In this document: positions 1,247-15,203 of the stretch, in pieces
Layout of the letters: each line of letters begins with the position of its first letter
Numbering within the stretch: position 1 is the first letter of the stretch
IMG/VR virus record: IMGVR_UViG_3300027848_000036
Location: 1 to 47,530 of that record
Origin: a virus
Reading direction: 5' to 3' (one strand)
DNA: 47,530 nucleotides
Made by a program: the position numbers and the translations under genes
The notes under the pieces: model-generated
What the model saw: only the letters and a program-made list of their open reading frames with translations
The model's database searches: none
What the model was told of the DNA's origin: nothing

Positions 1247-1918
1247 ATGAGCGAAGCGCAACCTACAAAAACAATACTTCTCGAACCAAGCGAAGAACAC
1301 CCGATCCCCTATGACCTATCGGATGAAGAACCGAAGACAAAGTTGGATGATCTGAAGATCACTGCAAGTACCGCTGACCTGCTTGATGAACTTGGTGCGG
1401 ACGACAGTATAAACCTCCCTGAACTAGACGACGAAAAAGACGAAACCGCGCTTAAAAAGCTGCTGAAACAAGCGGCCAGTGGTAACGCCAAGGCCTTACA
1501 GTCTAATATAGGTGCGCGCAGCGCGCAGGAATTCATGCGGAACTATTCTTCCGGTCTGGCTATGGATCACGCGCGCATACGCTCCGCGTTGACAAACAAG
1601 CTTCTGGAGCTAGCAGACCATGGGGACGCCAAGATAGAACTAAAGGCTATCGAATTACTCGGTAAACATAGTGATATCGGGATGTTTACAGAAAGATCAG
1701 AAATAAATATCAACTATAACTCCCCAGAAGCGCTGGAAAAAGCAATTAAAGACAGAGTAAAACGCCTGTTGAATGCACAACTGTTGGAAGGCCCACCCCT
1801 AGCGGACACAGTAGATGACCTATTCGCAGGGGTAAGGGAAAGAAGAGAGAAGAATAACATCCCCGAAGGGGATTTTGAAGAGATAGAAGCAGAAGAAGCA
1901 CCCCCTGCTGATGTTTGA
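1247..1918 (+). CDS. terS: probable terminase small subunit
   Basis: Expected to recognise phage DNA and regulate the large terminase during packaging. The call rests mainly on position, directly upstream of and overlapping the large terminase by 8 nt, and on size (223 aa). The N-terminal 85 residues are acidic and low-complexity. The middle (ALTNKLLELADHGDAKIELK and following) is helical and resembles the multimerisation region of small terminases. The C-terminus is strongly acidic. I chose ATG 1247 because GGGG lies 8-10 nt upstream; an in-frame TTG at 1196 would add 17 basic residues and lacks a good ribosome-binding site. No clear HTH is visible, so assignment is by context. Confidence 0.65.
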   Translation: MSEAQPTKTILLEPSEEHPIPYDLSDEEPKTKLDDLKITASTADLLDELGADDSINLPELDDEKDETALKKLLKQAASGNAKALQSNIGARSAQEFMRNYSSGLAMDHARIRSALTNKLLELADHGDAKIELKAIELLGKHSDIGMFTERSEININYNSPEALEKAIKDRVKRLLNAQLLEGPPLADTVDDLFAGVRERREKNNIPEGDFEEIEAEEAPPADV

Positions 1919-4412
1919 AGAAATCAAAATAGAAGATATCCCGAAGATACTGCCGCTCCTGTCCCCTGCGGAGCAGGAACTTCTTCTTGCCGAACTTGAA
2001 AAACTGGACAACCTGAAGAAGCGCAAGGCTGCGCAGGACCACTTCATGCCGTTCGTGCGGGAAGTATGGCCTACTTTTATATCAGGGCGGCACCATGCCA
2101 TTATGGCCGAGGCGTTTGAACGTGTGGCTGCGGGGACGTTAAAGCGCTTAATAATCAACATGCCACCGCGCCATCGGCTTGATATAAAAGAAGAAATCCC
2201 CACTACTACGGGATGGAAAACTGTCGAGACTGTAGAGACAGGGGATTATGTGTTCGCCCCAGATGGCACGCCTGTGCGGGTTATGGGTAAGTCGGCCCAG
2301 TACGAGGAAGACCTATACGAAGTCAAAACGGGTGATGGACAGGTAATAACCTGTGATGCTACCCACCTATGGACGGTGCGGTTTGGGTCGAACGATAGGC
2401 CATATCAGACGCTTTCTACCCAAGAAATCCTTCATAAGTTGGAGACAGAGAGTTGGCGCGAGTCAGGTAACCTCCCAATACTGCCCTCGCAGGAAGCCGC
2501 TAAGTACCCACATAGGCACGACTTACCCCTAACACCTTATATGCTAGGTGTATGGCTGGGGGATGGAAGTACGTACGGGGCTTCCATTGGCTGTGGGCGC
2601 GGCGACCAGCCTGCTATGCGAGCGCAGGTTGAGGCAGAGGGATACCAAACTACACACAACCCGAAATACCAGCAGTTTAATGTGTTGGGGACCCATAAAG
2701 TTCTACGTGAGCGGGGTATCCTACACAACAAACACATACCAGAAGAGTACCTGTGCGCTTCTGTAGAACAGCGCACCGCGCTCCTCCAAGGGCTTATCGA
2801 CACCGACGGTGACGTTACCAAGGAAGGGAAGGTAACCTTCAATAACAGTAACGAGCGGCTTATAGATGACACACTATGCCTTCTGCATGGACTAGGGGTT
2901 AAGGCGCGCAAAACGCGCCGCCAGACTAGCTACAAAGGGAAGCCGAGCCAACCGTCATTCCGGCTGATGTTTAAGATGGAGAACGCTGCGCGCCTTCCAC
3001 GCAAGGCGGAACGCTGCCGTAGTATGCGGGGTAACTGGGGGCGTAGTATAGATGTGTGCAAGACCACTAGGCGGGGGATAGTCCAGTGCTTGGAGGTGGA
3101 GAACACCGATGGTTTGTTTATGGCGGGCCGTGGGTGGGTTGTAACCCATAACACAAAATCCGAGTTCGCCTCCTACCTTCTTCCCGCATGGTTCCTCGGT
3201 AAATACCCCCAGAAGAAGGTTATTCAAACTTCCCATACCGCGGAGCTAGCCGTTGGCTTCGGGCGTAAAGTGCGTAACCTGTTCGATACAGATATATTCC
3301 ATGAATTGTTCCCCGGCGTGGCCTTGCAGGCGGATAGTAAGGCTGCTGGCCGCTGGCAGACAAACAAGGGCGGCGACTACTTCGCTATTGGTGTGGGCGG
3401 GGCCGTTACGGGTAAGGGCGCAGATGTACTTATTATCGATGATCCGCACTCCGAGCAAGAGGCGGCGCTAGCGGAAATAAACCCGGATATCTACGACAAG
3501 ACCTACGAGTGGTATACCTCTGGTCCGCGGCAGCGGCTCCAGCCGGGAGGGGCCATAGTCGTGGTTATGACCCGCTGGAGTAAGCGTGACCTTACAGGGC
3601 AGGTGCTGAAGTCCTCCAGCCAGCGTGGAGGTAATGAGTGGGAGGTTATAGAGTTTCCTGCGATCATGCCGTCAGGCAAGCCCCTGTGGCCGGAATTTTG
3701 GCCTATGGAGGAATTGACTGCACTGAAGACAGAACTGCCCAACAGCAAGTGGATGGCGCAGTACCAGCAGAACCCGACTTCTGACCAGTCTGCTATTATC
3801 AAGCGGGAGTGGTGGCAGGAGTGGCCCCATGATGACCCGCCACATTGTGAGTTCACCCTCCAGTCGTGGGACACAGCGTTCGAGAAGACCCAGCGTGCCG
3901 ACTATTCGGCGCTAACAATGTGGGGTGTGTTCTACAAGGAGGACGAGACAGGGACCAAGCAGCCCAACATTATCCTCCTGAATGCGTTCCGGGAGCGGAT
4001 GGAGTTTCCGCGGCTGAAGCAGGTTGCCATACAACATTATAATGACTGGGAACCTGATGGAGTAATTATTGAGAAGAAAGCCTCGGGCGCGCCACTCATA
4101 TACGAGCTTCGGGCTATGGGGTTACCGGTGCAGGAGTATACCCCGACCAGAGGTAATGATAAGATTTCCCGCCTGAACGCCGTGGCCGATATATTTGCCT
4201 CCGGGCGGGTGTGGGCACCCAACACACACTGGGCGGAAGAAGTTATAGACGAAGTGGCAGAATTCCCCGCAGGTTCCCATGATGACTATGTTGATAGCCT
4301 CAGTTTGGCGATGATGCGGTTCCGGCAGGGTGGCTATGTCACTACGCTACTAGACGAAGATGAAGAACAGATGTACTTTAAGGGCAGAAGCTCACGAAAA
4401 GGGTATTACTAA
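1911..4412 (+). CDS. terL: terminase large subunit, intein-containing precursor
   Basis: ATP-driven DNA packaging motor and nuclease that docks on the portal. The precursor is 833 aa; removing residues 89-414 (an intein) leaves a 507-aa terminase, a normal length. The ATPase P-loop region reads NMPPRH, intein, TKSEFASYLLP, so the insertion sits exactly in the nucleotide-binding loop. Walker B is ADVLIIDDPHSE (504-515). The C-terminal RNase H-like nuclease has SWDTAF (D654) and SHDDYVDS (D791, D792). The gene overlaps the small terminase by 8 nt, and its TAA overlaps the portal ATG (TAATG at 4410-4414). Without splicing the motor should be inactive, because the ATP-binding loop is split. Intact frame and conserved motifs argue that splicing is functional. 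Confidence 0.96.
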   Translation: MFEEIKIEDIPKILPLLSPAEQELLLAELEKLDNLKKRKAAQDHFMPFVREVWPTFISGRHHAIMAEAFERVAAGTLKRLIINMPPRHRLDIKEEIPTTTGWKTVETVETGDYVFAPDGTPVRVMGKSAQYEEDLYEVKTGDGQVITCDATHLWTVRFGSNDRPYQTLSTQEILHKLETESWRESGNLPILPSQEAAKYPHRHDLPLTPYMLGVWLGDGSTYGASIGCGRGDQPAMRAQVEAEGYQTTHNPKYQQFNVLGTHKVLRERGILHNKHIPEEYLCASVEQRTALLQGLIDTDGDVTKEGKVTFNNSNERLIDDTLCLLHGLGVKARKTRRQTSYKGKPSQPSFRLMFKMENAARLPRKAERCRSMRGNWGRSIDVCKTTRRGIVQCLEVENTDGLFMAGRGWVVTHNTKSEFASYLLPAWFLGKYPQKKVIQTSHTAELAVGFGRKVRNLFDTDIFHELFPGVALQADSKAAGRWQTNKGGDYFAIGVGGAVTGKGADVLIIDDPHSEQEAALAEINPDIYDKTYEWYTSGPRQRLQPGGAIVVVMTRWSKRDLTGQVLKSSSQRGGNEWEVIEFPAIMPSGKPLWPEFWPMEELTALKTELPNSKWMAQYQQNPTSDQSAIIKREWWQEWPHDDPPHCEFTLQSWDTAFEKTQRADYSALTMWGVFYKEDETGTKQPNIILLNAFRERMEFPRLKQVAIQHYNDWEPDGVIIEKKASGAPLIYELRAMGLPVQEYTPTRGNDKISRLNAVADIFASGRVWAPNTHWAEEVIDEVAEFPAGSHDDYVDSLSLAMMRFRQGGYVTTLLDEDEEQMYFKGRSSRKGYY
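2175..3152 (+). other. class 3-type intein with LAGLIDADG homing endonuclease in TerL
   Basis: A 326-residue in-frame insertion (precursor residues 89-414) between PPRH and TKSE. It starts with Arg, not Cys or Ser, so it lacks the class 1 nucleophile. The class 3 signature WCT is present: Trp154 in block B (ATHLWTV), Cys393 in block F (VQCLEVENTDGLFMAG) and Thr412 before the terminal His413-Asn414. The first C-extein residue is Thr415. Block A is recognisable (TTTGWKTVETVETGDYVFA). Both endonuclease motifs are intact: LGVWLGDGS (212-220) and LLQGLIDTDGDV (291-302), each keeping its acidic residue. Boundaries are set by aligning the flanks to the usual terminase PPRHxKSE loop. It probably splices itself out and can home into intein-free terL alleles. 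Confidence 0.93.
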
Positions 4413-12013: not shown

Positions 12014-12273
12014 TGGATGAAGTACATTGGTGGAATCTTATCCTTTCAGCTATATCGGGGTTGGTTATGTATTTGTTAAAAAGTCATTCCGATGAAGTGA
12101 AGCGGGTTAGTAAATTATTGAACCAGACGCGTGAGCAGGTCGCCCGTGACACTATGTCGCGTACTGAAGCTTCGGCTGCGTTCAAAGAACTCCAAATACG
12201 CATCGACCATCTAGGAGATAGGTTGAGCGATAAAATAGACAGTAACAACAGTAGATCAGGCGGGGGGAAATAA
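12013..12273 (+). CDS. single-span membrane protein with coiled coil, 86 aa
   Basis: GTG start overlaps the previous TAG by one base. Residues 6-22 (WWNLILSAISGLVMYLL) form one membrane segment. The remainder is a charged amphipathic helix (KSHSDEVKRVSKLLNQTREQ to DHLGDRLSDKIDSN). One N-terminal helix plus a cytoplasmic or periplasmic coiled coil is typical of small phage membrane proteins, including some holins or holin partners. It is well away from the lysis genes at 16.7-18.3 kb, so its role is open. Confidence 0.65.
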   Translation: MDEVHWWNLILSAISGLVMYLLKSHSDEVKRVSKLLNQTREQVARDTMSRTEASAAFKELQIRIDHLGDRLSDKIDSNNSRSGGGK

Positions 12274-12274
12274 T

Positions 12275-12744
12275 ATGGCCCAGAGTTTCAAACAAGCATT
12301 CGCAGCGGCGCGCAAAGCCAAAGGCGCGGGGGGTACATTCTCGTGGAATGGTAAAAAATGGAATACTGATTACGAGGGGGAAAAAGCTGGTAAGGCTGCG
12401 GCCAAGTCAGGTCGGACTATGCCTGCTGCGCCTACTCGTGGAAATAATATGGCCCAGAGTTTCAAACAAGCATTCGCAGCGGCGCGCAAAGCCAAAGGCG
12501 CGGGGGGTACATTCTCGTGGAATGGTAAAAAATGGAATACTGATTACGAGGGGGAAAAAGCTGGTAAGGCTGCGGCCAAGTCAGGTCGGACTATGCCTGC
12601 TGCGCCTACTCGTGGAAATAATATGGCCCAGAGTTTCAAACAAGCATTCGCAGCGGCGCGCAAAGCCAAAGGCGCGGGGGGTACATTCTCGTGGAATGGT
12701 AAAAAATGGAATACTGATTACGAGGGGGAAAAAGCTGGTAAGGC
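12275..12744 (+). repeat. 174-bp perfect tandem repeat, 2.7 copies
   Basis: Copies begin at 12275, 12449 and 12623 with period 174 bp (58 codons). The third ends at 12744. I find no mismatches between copies. Each copy starts with ATGGCCCAG preceded by GGAAATAAT, so the duplicated unit includes the sequence just upstream of the original start codon. Perfect identity implies recent expansion by slippage or recombination. Confidence 0.93.
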
Positions 12745-13297
12745 CGCCCCCAAGAAAGAAACCGAGGCTGCGGCCAAGAAAGAAACCAAATACACAGGCT
12801 CATTAGCGGGGAAAGGGTTTACACCCCCAGCAGCGAAAAAACCTTCGGATGCTTTACGCGCTGCTGCGGCCAAGAAAGAAACCAAATACACAGGCTCATT
12901 AGCGGGGAAAGGGTTTACACCCCCAGCAGCGAAAAAACCTTCGGATGTGAATAGTAAAGACCTCCCAAAAGCGGGGGGCACCACCAGAGGTACCAAAGTT
13001 GTTGGTGGGCCACAGAAACACCCTACGTCTATGGTCGTAGATAAAGACTCCTTGGCAAATAAAGCGGGTCCAGCCGTGCGTAAAGCTATAAGCGATATTG
13101 GGAGCTGGGCGAGTGAAGTGCGCAGCAGAGATATCCGCGAAACAGAAAAAAAAGCCGCGGCCTCTCAAAAGCGAAGGCTCGCAGCGGCTAGTAGCACCAA
13201 AGCCGCCAAGGGGGGTAGTATCAAAAAACTCGCCAAAGGGGGCCGTGTAGGTGATGGGTGCGCCAAAAGTGGGCGTACTAAGGGAAGGTTTGTGTAA
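12275..13297 (+). CDS. Lys/Gly-rich protein with internal tandem triplication, 340 aa
   Basis: The N-terminal half consists of a 58-residue unit beginning MAQSFKQAFAAARKAKGAGG, present twice in full and once as a 41-residue copy. The DNA copies are identical. A second duplicated unit, based on TKYTGSLAGKGFTPPAAKK, follows. The C-terminus is GGRVGDGCAKSGRTKGRFV, a motif shared with the next two reading frames. The unit FSWNGKKWNTDYEGEKA occurs in many phage virion-associated proteins, in my recollection, but its function is not known to me. High lysine content suggests DNA or capsid-interior association. Starts one base after the previous stop. Confidence 0.75.
   Translation: MAQSFKQAFAAARKAKGAGGTFSWNGKKWNTDYEGEKAGKAAAKSGRTMPAAPTRGNNMAQSFKQAFAAARKAKGAGGTFSWNGKKWNTDYEGEKAGKAAAKSGRTMPAAPTRGNNMAQSFKQAFAAARKAKGAGGTFSWNGKKWNTDYEGEKAGKAAPKKETEAAAKKETKYTGSLAGKGFTPPAAKKPSDALRAAAAKKETKYTGSLAGKGFTPPAAKKPSDVNSKDLPKAGGTTRGTKVVGGPQKHPTSMVVDKDSLANKAGPAVRKAISDIGSWASEVRSRDIRETEKKAAASQKRRLAAASSTKAAKGGSIKKLAKGGRVGDGCAKSGRTKGRFV
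12767..12947 (+). repeat. 85-bp direct repeat, two copies
   Basis: Identical 85-bp stretches at 12767-12851 and 12863-12947 (period 96 bp, 32 codons) encode AAAKKETKYTGSLAGKGF and the following PPAAKKPSD. This is a second in-frame duplication inside the same gene. Confidence 0.9.
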
Positions 13298-13686
13298 TGA
13301 GTAAGTTGGGTAAAATAGCTGGCTCTATATCCCCCCTTATAGGGGCTATTAACGGCCAAGGCCTTTTTGGTAAGTTGTTGCGTCCCAAGGACGACAGTGA
13401 GGAAGCCCTTGCTGCCGCCATGGAGGGGGAAAAGAAAAAAGGTGGGGCCAAGAAAATGGCCAAGGGCGGCAGGGTAAACAACAACGTTAAACAGAAGGAA
13501 CCCGTAACTGGGGGTCCTAAAACTGTGCCAGATACCGCGGAGCGCAGAGACTTCTTGGAGCGTATGCAGAAGCAGAACAAAGACACACGCGCTAAATCCG
13601 CTAAGAAAAATCCCGGCTATGCCAAAGGCGGGCGTGTAGGCGATGGGATTGCTAAAAGAGGCCGTACTAGAGGAAGGATGATATAA
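13297..13686 (+). CDS. Lys/Gly-rich protein with GRVGDG-type C-terminus, 129 aa
   Basis: ATG overlaps the previous stop (TAATG). The N-terminal 30 residues are hydrophobic-amphipathic (KIAGSISPLIGAINGQGLFG). The middle is lysine-rich with MAKGGRV, and the C-terminus KGGRVGDGIAKRGRTRGRMI repeats the motif of the upstream protein. Function unknown. The strongly basic, glycine-spaced tail suggests nucleic-acid or capsid interaction. Forms part of a run of small basic ORFs. Confidence 0.7.
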   Translation: MSKLGKIAGSISPLIGAINGQGLFGKLLRPKDDSEEALAAAMEGEKKKGGAKKMAKGGRVNNNVKQKEPVTGGPKTVPDTAERRDFLERMQKQNKDTRAKSAKKNPGYAKGGRVGDGIAKRGRTRGRMI

Positions 13687-13787
13687 TACATAAAGCTGAT
13701 GGATGTGCAAAGCGGGGTAAGACCCGTCTGCGCAAGCAAGCCAACCTAGAACTTATTCGGGAGGGCAGGGGCTTAAACCCGCTATGA
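13683..13787 (+). pseudogene. start-less micro-ORF with the GCAKRGKTR motif
   Basis: This frame encodes HKADGCAKRGKTRLRKQANL and ends NPL-stop at 13787. It carries the same motif as the C-termini of the two preceding proteins, so it is probably coding in origin. No ATG, GTG or TTG is available: the frame opens after a TAG at 13668-13670, and AGGAAGG (13671-13677) precedes two ATA codons (13683, 13686). Either a start codon has been lost, an ATA start is used, or it is reached by reinitiation from the ATGATATAA that ends the previous gene. Confidence 0.4.
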
Positions 13788-13840
13788 ACGCAAACACCAG
13801 TCTTTTGAAACGTGGTGGTAAAGTGAAGAAGAAGAAGTAG
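13784..13840 (+). CDS. 18-residue basic peptide, possible micro-gene
   Basis: Encodes MNANTSLLKRGGKVKKKK. Its ATG overlaps the stop of the start-less frame before it (ATGA at 13784-13787), the usual sign of translational coupling. The KRGGKVKKK sequence matches the lysine/glycine style of the neighbouring proteins. Too short for statistical support, so expression needs direct evidence. Confidence 0.4.
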   Translation: MNANTSLLKRGGKVKKKK

Positions 13841-13846
13841 TATTAC

Positions 13847-14029
13847 ATGAAAGCTACTGCACGCACTAGAAAGCTCCAGCGGGATAAAGCAATTTATCAA
13901 CCGGGGAATATGCGTAGGCAGTTGAACATAAAGGAGAGGCAGGCAAAACCTGCCTCTGAAGCGGAGTCCGAGAAGGTCAAACGTGACCGGAAGGATAAAT
14001 GGCATACGAAAGTGAAGTTGAGGACGTAA
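13847..14029 (+). CDS. small basic protein, 60 aa
   Basis: A highly basic protein (MKATARTRKLQRDKAIYQPG), with more than a third Lys and Arg. It starts 6 nt after the 18-residue peptide stop; the ribosome-binding site is not strong. Its stop forms TAATG with an internal ATG at 14029 of the next gene. No domain recognised. Member of the run of basic small ORFs between 12.3 and 14.0 kb. Confidence 0.55.
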   Translation: MKATARTRKLQRDKAIYQPGNMRRQLNIKERQAKPASEAESEKVKRDRKDKWHTKVKLRT

Positions 14030-14703
14030 TGGCCACTACTGGCACAACATCTGCCAATCTGGACTTGAACGCTATCGTTGAAGAGGCGTTTGAACGGTGT
14101 GGGCGCGAGGTCCGTACCGGCTATGATATGAAGACAGCCCGCCGCAGCCTCAATCTCCTTATGATGGAGTGGAGCAACCGCGGCATAAACCTATGGACTG
14201 TAGAAGAAGGCTCTATCCCGCTGGTTGCAGGCACGGCCACTTACGATCTTCCAGCCGACACAGTAGATTTGATGGATCAGGTTATACGCACGGGTTCTGG
14301 TACAACCCAGTCTGATATTAACATCTCCCGTATAAGTGTATCTACCTACGCAACTATACCTAATAAGACCAGCACCGGTAGGCCCATACAGCTATGGATT
14401 AACCGGCTAGCTGCCCCCACGGTTACCGTTTGGCCTGTGCCGGATAGCGGTGATTACACTATGCTATACTGGAGGCTACGTAGGATTGAAGATGCTGGTG
14501 ATGGACTGAACACACAGGATGTTCCCTATCGTTTCCTCCCCTGCCTTGTTTCTGGACTAGCTTATAATCTCTCCCTGAAGCTCCCCGGCGCGTTAGAACG
14601 CTCTGCCCTGCTGAAACAGGAGTATATAGAACAGTGGGGGATGGCGGCTGACGAAGATCGTGAGAAAGCCACTCTTCGTATCGTTCCGCATATAGGGAGA
14701 TAG
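13999..14703 (+). CDS. T7 gp11-like tail tubular / head-tail adaptor protein
   Basis: Adaptor ring between portal and nozzle in short-tailed phages. Helical N-terminus (DLNAIVEEAFERCGREVRTG), then SLNLLMMEWSNRGINLWTVE, beta-rich centre with TATYDLPADTVDLMD and TVWPVPDSGDYTMLYWRLRR, and C-terminal helices, a layout familiar from podovirus adaptors. Two starts are plausible: ATG 13999 after GGAAGG, and ATG 14029 overlapping the previous stop (TAATG). The conserved region begins soon after the second, which I slightly favour on coupling grounds; the longer form is given here. Confidence 0.82.
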   Translation: MAYESEVEDVMATTGTTSANLDLNAIVEEAFERCGREVRTGYDMKTARRSLNLLMMEWSNRGINLWTVEEGSIPLVAGTATYDLPADTVDLMDQVIRTGSGTTQSDINISRISVSTYATIPNKTSTGRPIQLWINRLAAPTVTVWPVPDSGDYTMLYWRLRRIEDAGDGLNTQDVPYRFLPCLVSGLAYNLSLKLPGALERSALLKQEYIEQWGMAADEDREKATLRIVPHIGR

Positions 14704-14706
14704 AAT

Positions 14707-15060
14707 ATGGGCACGCGCTTCGCTGCCGGTAAAAAGGCTATTGCTATATGTGACCGTTGTGGATTCCAATATAAACTGTCTCAGTTGAAAGAAACCGTAG
14801 TAAAAATGCGGAAGACCGGCCTGTTGGTTTGCCGTGAATGCTGGGAGCCTGACCAACCACAAAACATGCAGGGTATGTACCCTGTGGTTGACCCTCAAGC
14901 GCTACGTAAGTCCCGCCCTGATAATAGTGAAGAACAGTCCCGCGACATTCAGTGGGGCTGGAACCCTGTGGGAATGAATAATGTCTTGGGGTTATCAGGC
15001 ATTCCTGATACTATGGTAGGGGCAGGAGCCGTAGGAACTGTGTCTGTGGAGATAAGCTGA
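14707..15060 (+). CDS. zinc-ribbon phage protein, 117 aa
   Basis: Two CxxC pairs, C15-C18 (CDRCGFQYK) and C42-C45 (CRECWEPDQPQ), form a probable zinc ribbon, followed by a Pro-rich hydrophilic tail. It lies between two adaptor-type genes and ends with an ATGA overlap with the next small gene. A structural role in the head-tail junction or a DNA-contact role is possible. Function not known to me. Confidence 0.75.
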   Translation: MGTRFAAGKKAIAICDRCGFQYKLSQLKETVVKMRKTGLLVCRECWEPDQPQNMQGMYPVVDPQALRKSRPDNSEEQSRDIQWGWNPVGMNNVLGLSGIPDTMVGAGAVGTVSVEIS

Positions 15061-15203
15061 TGAACAAGTACAACCAACCAAAATCCGTCCCAGTACCTAA
15101 TGTATGCGGGTACCCTAACAAAATTGCGAATACGCAGACCCTCAAGGTGCGCGGCACTGGCGCGGCTACAAAAGGTACTGGCGCTAGCCAGAAAATGGGC
15201 TGA
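15060..15203 (+). CDS. 47-residue conserved basic peptide
   Basis: Encodes a peptide beginning MNKYNQPKSVPVPNVCGYPN and ending with TLKVRGTGAATKGTGASQ and KMG. Both ends overlap neighbours by ATGA (15060-15063 and around 15201-15205), so it is translationally coupled on each side. The RGTGAATKG phrase is one I associate with many marine phage genomes, always as a very short protein. Function unknown. Short length makes it easy to miss. Confidence 0.7.
   Translation: MNKYNQPKSVPVPNVCGYPNKIANTQTLKVRGTGAATKGTGASQKMG

What the first reader, a model, noticed from the sequence alone, without database searches (positions are those of the whole stretch)
13671..13840. Start-less ORF and coupled 18-aa peptide in a cluster sharing the G-C/I-AKRG-R/K-T motif
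Three consecutive reading frames carry the same motif (VGDGCAKSGRTKG, VGDGIAKRGRTRG, ADGCAKRGKTR). The third has no ATG/GTG/TTG but a strong AGGAAGG before ATA codons, and its stop forms ATGA with an 18-residue Lys-rich peptide. Either non-canonical initiation, reinitiation after ATGATATAA, or recent start loss. The repeated occurrence of one short motif at successive ORF ends looks like a functional tag or DNA-binding tail of unknown purpose.
Basis: partly seen in the sequence, partly recalled or inferred. Interest (0 to 1): 0.6.

Follow-up and report, generated by a model that had tools for sequence, protein, structure and literature searches.

The report
Portable phage C-terminal tag; broken copy
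The start-less frame is a broken leftover of a short protein ending that, in intact form, closes dozens of otherwise unrelated proteins at one spot in a large group of uncultivated water phages, probably as a shared address label.

Summary
It is the relic of one copy of a C-terminal tag. Among 409 closed tag frames in the fetched DNA, only this one and its copies in the nearest relative lack a start codon. Its conserved Gly is Leu, its stop is gone, and the relative differs by an indel exactly at the tag's end and has a nonsense codon in the next small ORF.

The motif itself matters. DG[C/I]Ax[R/K]G[K/R]T[K/R]G[K/R]MV* is a portable tail. A 32-nt pattern found 141 copies in 121 viral contigs, 120 ending exactly three residues later, on about 87 unrelated bodies, at one island just upstream of the portal adaptor. 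A tag-blind sample gave 60 copies upstream and none in 261 kb downstream. Synonymous codons vary, so selection acts on the peptide. The exception is the last Gly codon, mostly GGA/GGG when the tag ends the gene; it forms a Shine-Dalgarno for the next, overlapping gene. This explains the 'strong AGGAAGG'.

Function is inferred: an address tag on variable, probably virion-carried proteins, like the capsid-targeting sequence of T4 internal proteins. No family model or paper for it was found.

The parts
12275..13297 (+). ORF1, tagged gene; body carries three near-identical SFKQAFAAARKAKGAGGTFSWNGKKWNTD units
   Evidence: single unit in L002 and L003
13253..13294 (+). C-terminal tag of ORF1, DGCAKSGRTKGRFV
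13280..13288 (+). AAGGGAAGG in the tag's coding end, Shine-Dalgarno of ORF2 (8 nt before ATG 13297, TAATG overlap)
   Evidence: sequence; codon statistics in relatives
13297..13686 (+). ORF2, tagged gene under purifying selection (dN/dS 0.078 against L003)
13642..13683 (+). C-terminal tag of ORF2, DGIAKRGRTRGRMI
13671..13677 (+). AGGAAGG inside ORF2's tag: embedded Shine-Dalgarno whose downstream start codon is missing
13683..13688 (+). Two ATA codons of the start-less frame; 13683 is the -1 position where the clade most often has ATG
13671..13787 (+). Start-less open frame: relic of a third tag copy
13692..13730 (+). Degenerate tag KADGCAKRGKTRL (Gly+10 replaced by Leu)
13731..13737 (+). Site of the 6-nt indel and substitutions against L002/L013, which keeps KMV here
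13784..13840 (+). 18-aa ORF MNANTSLLKRGGKVKKKK; its KRGGKVKK resembles stretches inside tagged proteins
13847..14029 (+). 60-aa ORF, weakly like the KAIKKPGALR small-protein family; nonsense codon in L013 at the codon matching 13940
14029..14703 (+). Portal adaptor (SU10/Pam1 type), fixed downstream neighbour of the island

Best explanation
(1) Relic (about 0.85): the start-less frame is a decayed orphan copy of a C-terminal tag, left after a third tagged gene lost its body and start. (2) Tag (about 0.9): intact copies are a portable C-terminal peptide module, typically xKGGxVSSASKRADG(C/I)AxRGKTxG(K/R)MV*. It is shared by dozens of unrelated small basic proteins encoded in one hypervariable island just upstream of the portal-adaptor gene of a large aquatic phage clade, and it is kept by selection on the peptide. 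(3) Dual coding (about 0.85): when the tag ends the gene, its last codons (GGA/GGG then AAG/AGG/CGG) also form the Shine-Dalgarno of the next gene, whose ATG overlaps or abuts the stop. (4) Function (about 0.4, inferred): the tag is an address label. A conserved head or neck component recognises this disordered tail, so that a changeable set of proteins is carried in or on the virion and perhaps delivered to the host, as the capsid-targeting sequence does for T4's diverse internal proteins. Steps 1-3 rest on sequence statistics; step 4 is inference.
For: Relic: of 409 closed tag frames only this one and its copies lack a start. Gly+10 is Leu; the relative shows KMV then no stop, with a 6-nt indel exactly at the tag end, and a nonsense codon in the next ORF. 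Portable tag: 141 copies in 121 contigs, 120 with exactly 3 residues before the stop, on about 87 unrelated body clusters; 108 of 124 loci carry the adaptor, gene/tag strand agreement 696 to 0. Tag-blind set: 60 copies, 47 ending at the stop, all upstream of the adaptor, 0 in 261 kb downstream. Peptide selection: D, G, G, T invariant in 52 of 52 blind copies while synonymous codons vary. Dual coding: Gly+10 is GGA/GGG in 84/121 terminal tags against 21/242 at Gly+1/+6 (p 6e-33) and 2/20 in tags with 3 or more further residues (p 6e-7); replicate 28/44 against 8/92 (p 4e-11) and 1/18. The next start lies within 6 nt of the stop in 105/120; replicate, next ATG at -1 to +6 in 40/46. Function: some tagged proteins match PHROG 'virion structural protein' families; tag predicted disordered; no membrane stretch; precedent in T4 (PMC3012670).
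Against: No binding partner, virion proteome or expression data. The PHROG 'virion structural' match rests on a 45-aa N-terminal module, not on the tag. The strict tag is missing from 14 of 35 clade loci with at least 3 kb upstream, although 10 of the 14 have variant tails. The relic frame is still open in the nearest relative and keeps the -1 overlap with the 18-aa ORF, so a role cannot be excluded. Window and L013 are too similar for a selection test on the relic.
Confidence: 0.6

Rival explanations
1. The tag is a nucleic-acid-binding tail: basic C-termini that hold small proteins on phage DNA or RNA, without a protein receptor.
For: Tag and bodies are both basic (mean net charge about +6 and +5); K and R exchange freely at four positions.
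Against: Asp, Gly, Cys/Ile, Ala and Thr are conserved more strictly than the charges; the exact distance to the C-terminus is fixed. Neither is needed for charge binding.
Confidence: 0.25
2. The start-less frame is translated, from ATA with the strong SD, or by reinitiation after ORF2, giving a minimal tag-only peptide.
For: AGGAAGG stands 5 and 8 nt before the ATAs; the frame is open in L013 as well and its stop overlaps the ATG of the 18-aa ORF in the clade's usual way.
Against: The SD is explained by the tag of ORF2; no other tag frame lacks a start; the tag is degenerate at Gly+10 and at its end; ATA is a very weak start in bacteria (general knowledge).
Confidence: 0.08
3. A single point change TGA to TAA at ORF2's stop turned an ATGA overlap into ATAA and so removed the start of a real short third gene.
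For: The -1 ATG overlap is the commonest geometry after tags (35 of 120); ATA at 13683 is one change from ATG.
Against: The product would be a bare tag without body, unlike any other copy; the relative shares the ATA, so there is no direct trace of the ATG.
Confidence: 0.2
4. The motif is conserved only as DNA or RNA, as a recombination target or a ribosome-binding site, and the peptide has no function.
For: The last codons do form an SD; tagged genes sit in a shuffled island.
Against: Synonymous positions differ widely between copies that share the peptide (third-position identity 46% between contigs), and the first 10 residues of the motif do not contribute to the SD.
Confidence: 0.05

Closest known systems
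T4 internal proteins (IPI and relatives) with the capsid-targeting sequence (PMC3012670)
   Same: One constant short tag on a set of diverse small proteins; variable bodies, constant address.
   Different: The T4 tag is N-terminal (general knowledge). Here the tag is C-terminal, with no known sequence likeness, in another phage clade, and carriage in the head is not shown.
Encapsulin cargo-loading peptides (from memory)
   Same: Short C-terminal peptide after a flexible linker on unrelated proteins, read by a shell of the HK97 fold.
   Different: No encapsulin here; the receptor is unknown; the sequence differs.
PHROG 16759 / 22033 / 25121 and phiKZ PHIKZ165.1
   Same: The N-terminal module MPSxSKKQHNFMAAVAHNPAFAKKxGVPQSVGxDF of some tagged proteins.
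   Different: phiKZ165.1 has the module without the tag; the tag is outside those families' matched region.
DUF6321 (PF19846)
   Same: Module found in the same island and once with the tag fused behind it (L029).
   Different: DUF6321 is a larger domain; it does not contain the tag.

Membership tests
T4 internal proteins / capsid-targeting sequence | Constant targeting sequence on otherwise diverse proteins | tested here: met
   about 87 unrelated body clusters with one tail
T4 internal proteins / capsid-targeting sequence | Targeting sequence at the N-terminus | tested here: not met
   the tag lies at the C-terminus, 120 of 141 ending 3 residues later
T4 internal proteins / capsid-targeting sequence | Protein packaged in the head and injected | not testable with these tools
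   no virion proteome; only an indirect PHROG match
Encapsulin cargo-loading peptide | C-terminal linker plus short peptide on unrelated cargo | tested here: met
   tag predicted disordered
Encapsulin cargo-loading peptide | Bound by a shell protein encoded next to the cargo | not testable with these tools
   the capsid gene is nearby but binding is unknown
C-terminal sorting signals with membrane anchor (LPXTG, PEP-CTERM, GlyGly-CTERM) | Hydrophobic helix near the C-terminus | tested here: not met
   no 19-residue window above 1.6 in the last 60 residues of 144 proteins; no sorting-signal model among NCBIfam matches
P-loop (Walker A, GxxxxGK[ST]) | Invariant Lys inside an NTPase fold | tested here: not met
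   GCAQRGKT fits the pattern, but Lys is Arg in the window's ORF1 and ORF2 and His in 6 of 52 blind copies; the region is predicted disordered
Known protein family in Pfam, NCBIfam or PHROGs | Tag covered by a family profile | tested here: not met
   134 tagged proteins: few, scattered matches; in proteins scanned one by one the matches lie in the bodies

The most novel reading that the evidence does not exclude
A large group of uncultivated aquatic tailed phages carries a swappable set of small proteins, each marked by one constant C-terminal address tag that loads them into the virion for delivery. The same DNA that codes the tag serves as the ribosome-binding site of the next module, so any tagged cassette slotted into the operon is both translated and addressed.
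Probability: 0.3. Interest if true: 0.85.

Novelty: new variant of a known kind. Interest (0 to 1): 0.58.

Why it matters
If the tag is an address, one short peptide would identify a whole class of virion-delivered proteins in uncultivated phages, whose bodies are too diverse for homology searches. It would also offer a C-terminal handle for loading cargo into phage heads. The dual-coding end explains how cassettes can be swapped without breaking translation of the next gene. It also warns that open frames and strong Shine-Dalgarno sequences after such genes, as in this finding, can be by-products.

Tried and rejected
Isolate phages by DNA similarity: none. ORF2 as protein against isolates: none. 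Tag in plasmids: none. Tag in 257 Gb of bacterial and archaeal genomes: 3 hits; one is an out-of-context frame, one lies on a contig that also carries the phage adaptor, one sits at a contig end fused to an acyltransferase, likely a chimera. Tag peptide in phage isolates: only three Planktothrix/Synechococcus phages. Walker A reading: rejected, see membership test. Programmed frameshift from ORF2: no slippery heptamer in the sequence. Dependence of the Gly codon bias on distance to the next start: uninformative, because almost all tags are coupled (12 'far' cases, p 0.74); the extended tags served as the control instead. dN/dS on the relic: impossible, too few differences. One of my own counts ('35 of 35 loci with a tag') was a script error and was corrected (21 of 35). 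Structure search of one tagged family: only uncharacterised viral proteins, low-confidence model. Literature: no paper with the tag letters, PHIKZ165.1 or Pag-Yong1.

Full report
What is in the window. The window is a virus record of 47,530 bases, a tailed phage with terminase, portal, capsid and an SU10-type adaptor. Between the capsid block and the adaptor lie ORF1 (12275-13297) and ORF2 (13297-13686), both ending in the motif. They are followed by the start-less frame 13671-13787, an 18-aa ORF (13784-13840), a 60-aa ORF (13847-14029) and the adaptor, which by comparison with relatives starts at 14029. Two motif matches in the window against none in 100 shuffles exclude chance.

The nearest relatives. 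Its third frame reads KADGCAKRGKTRLKMVSLANLE, that is, the normal tag end KMV but no stop. The window differs there by a 6-nt gap and several changes, the largest difference in 480 bases. The 60-aa ORF of L013 carries a nonsense codon. L003, at about 85% DNA identity, has three tagged genes and a DUF6321-like gene in the same place and no relic. ORF2 is under strong purifying selection (dN/dS 0.078, dS 0.885 against L003). So the operon looks live up to 13686 and decayed from there to 14029.

The motif elsewhere. In them and in L014 there are 141 copies. In 120 the frame ends exactly three residues after DGCAxRGKTxG, and in the rest 4 to 17 residues after. The bodies fall into about 87 clusters without detectable similarity. 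Columns outside the pattern are conserved too: SASKRA before it and MV-stop after it. Of 124 loci, 108 carry the window's adaptor, in all but one downstream of the tagged gene and mostly within 0.5-2.9 kb; gene and tag strands agree 696 to 0. Capsid proteins of the listed loci match the window's at about 80% identity, so this is one clade with a hypervariable island.

A tag-blind test. A profile of the tag found 60 copies, all on the adaptor's strand, 47 ending exactly at the stop. All lie upstream of the adaptor (223 kb) and none downstream (261 kb). Of 35 loci with at least 3 kb upstream, 21 have a strict tag and 10 more have variant tails such as RGDGIAKRGRTRGRIV*, GGGIESRGKTKGRFV* or VRGAGCAKKGVRPCKMM*. 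In 52 copies not in the first set D, G, G and T are invariant, C/I and A nearly so, and K/R exchange freely. Bodies occur with the strict tag, with a variant, or without it. One body module is 74% identical to phiKZ's PHIKZ165.1, which ends without a tag.

Peptide and RNA both matter. Among copies with the same peptide, third codon positions are only 46% identical between contigs, so the peptide is what selection keeps. One stretch is different. The last Gly codon is GGA or GGG in 84 of 121 tags that end the gene, against 21 of 242 for the other two Gly codons (p 6e-33), and in only 2 of 20 tags that run on for 3 or more residues (p 6e-7). The tag-blind set repeats this: 28 of 44, 8 of 92, 1 of 18. 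The next gene starts within 6 nt of the tag's stop in 105 of 120, mostly at -1 (ATGA), +2 (TAATG), +4 or +5, and in the replicate the next ATG lies at -1 to +6 in 40 of 46. The tag end is therefore also the Shine-Dalgarno of the next gene. ORF1 to ORF2 in the window is a clear case (AAGGGAAGG, 8 nt, TAATG). ORF2 keeps the signal but the next start is missing.

The start-less frame. Of 409 closed tag frames in all fetched DNA, the only ones without a start codon before the tag are this one and copies of the same stretch in overlapping loci. Its Gly+10 is Leu, its stop is gone, and the residues after the tag resemble nothing else found beyond the near-identical relative. A relic is the simplest reading. 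A point loss of an ATG at 13683 is possible as part of the story, since -1 is the clade's commonest start position, but no relative shows it. ATA initiation has nothing in its favour beyond the borrowed SD.

What the tag may do. The tag usually follows a Gly/Ser-containing linker, is predicted disordered in the one family modelled (pLDDT 38-51), has no membrane stretch and is basic. It marks mostly small proteins encoded beside the capsid and neck genes. One tagged family shares its N-terminal module with PHROG 'virion structural protein' families. T4 offers the precedent: its internal proteins are described as a diverse set of defence proteins sharing only a capsid-targeting sequence (PMC3012670). 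I therefore favour an address tag for virion-carried proteins. This is inference, at about 0.4. A nucleic-acid-binding tail is the main rival.

Novelty. No family model covers the tag, no open-access full text in the library holds its letters, and bacterial genomes and plasmids practically lack it. The principle, one tag on many bodies, is known; a C-terminal, dual-coding version in this clade appears undescribed in what I could search.

Noticed in passing
12266-12744: Perfect 174-bp tandem repeat (2.8 copies, 100% identical) inside ORF1, including an internal ATG; L002 has one copy. A 96-bp perfect repeat follows (12767-12947).
   Followed up: partly
1911-4412: Large terminase interrupted after MPPRH by an intein-like insert with a LAGLIDADG domain; the insert seems to begin with Arg where Cys or Ser would be expected.
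   Followed up: partly
L014, L015, L026, L030 and others, gene after the tagged gene: 39 of 114 genes next to a tagged gene begin with a second constant module, MxASRGMGAIxPSKMPK...YAEGGKV, an N-terminal counterpart of the tag.
   Followed up: partly
15060-15203: 47-aa ORF containing LKVRGTGAATKGTGASQKMG, resembling the variant tails (RGxGxAxKG) of related phages.
   Followed up: no
27713 and 31576: YAGGGEV and MAGGGLV motifs in two large late proteins (one with an SLT domain), like the xAKGGxV stretch before the tags; may link tagged proteins to internal virion proteins.
   Followed up: no
L137:165-1841: Acyltransferase on a contig of a Patulibacter bin ends in a perfect phage tag near the contig end; probably a chimeric assembly.
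   Followed up: partly
L201 near 371 and L167 near 1025: Proteins with two tag copies in tandem, or with the tag followed by repeated MAGGG-like units.
   Followed up: no
Extended tags, e.g. L036, L090, L081, L089, L016: In about 15% of motif-found copies the tag runs on, often into a second short ending such as GTMVMCGGGMxK or GTQIKMMGGGAC.
   Followed up: partly
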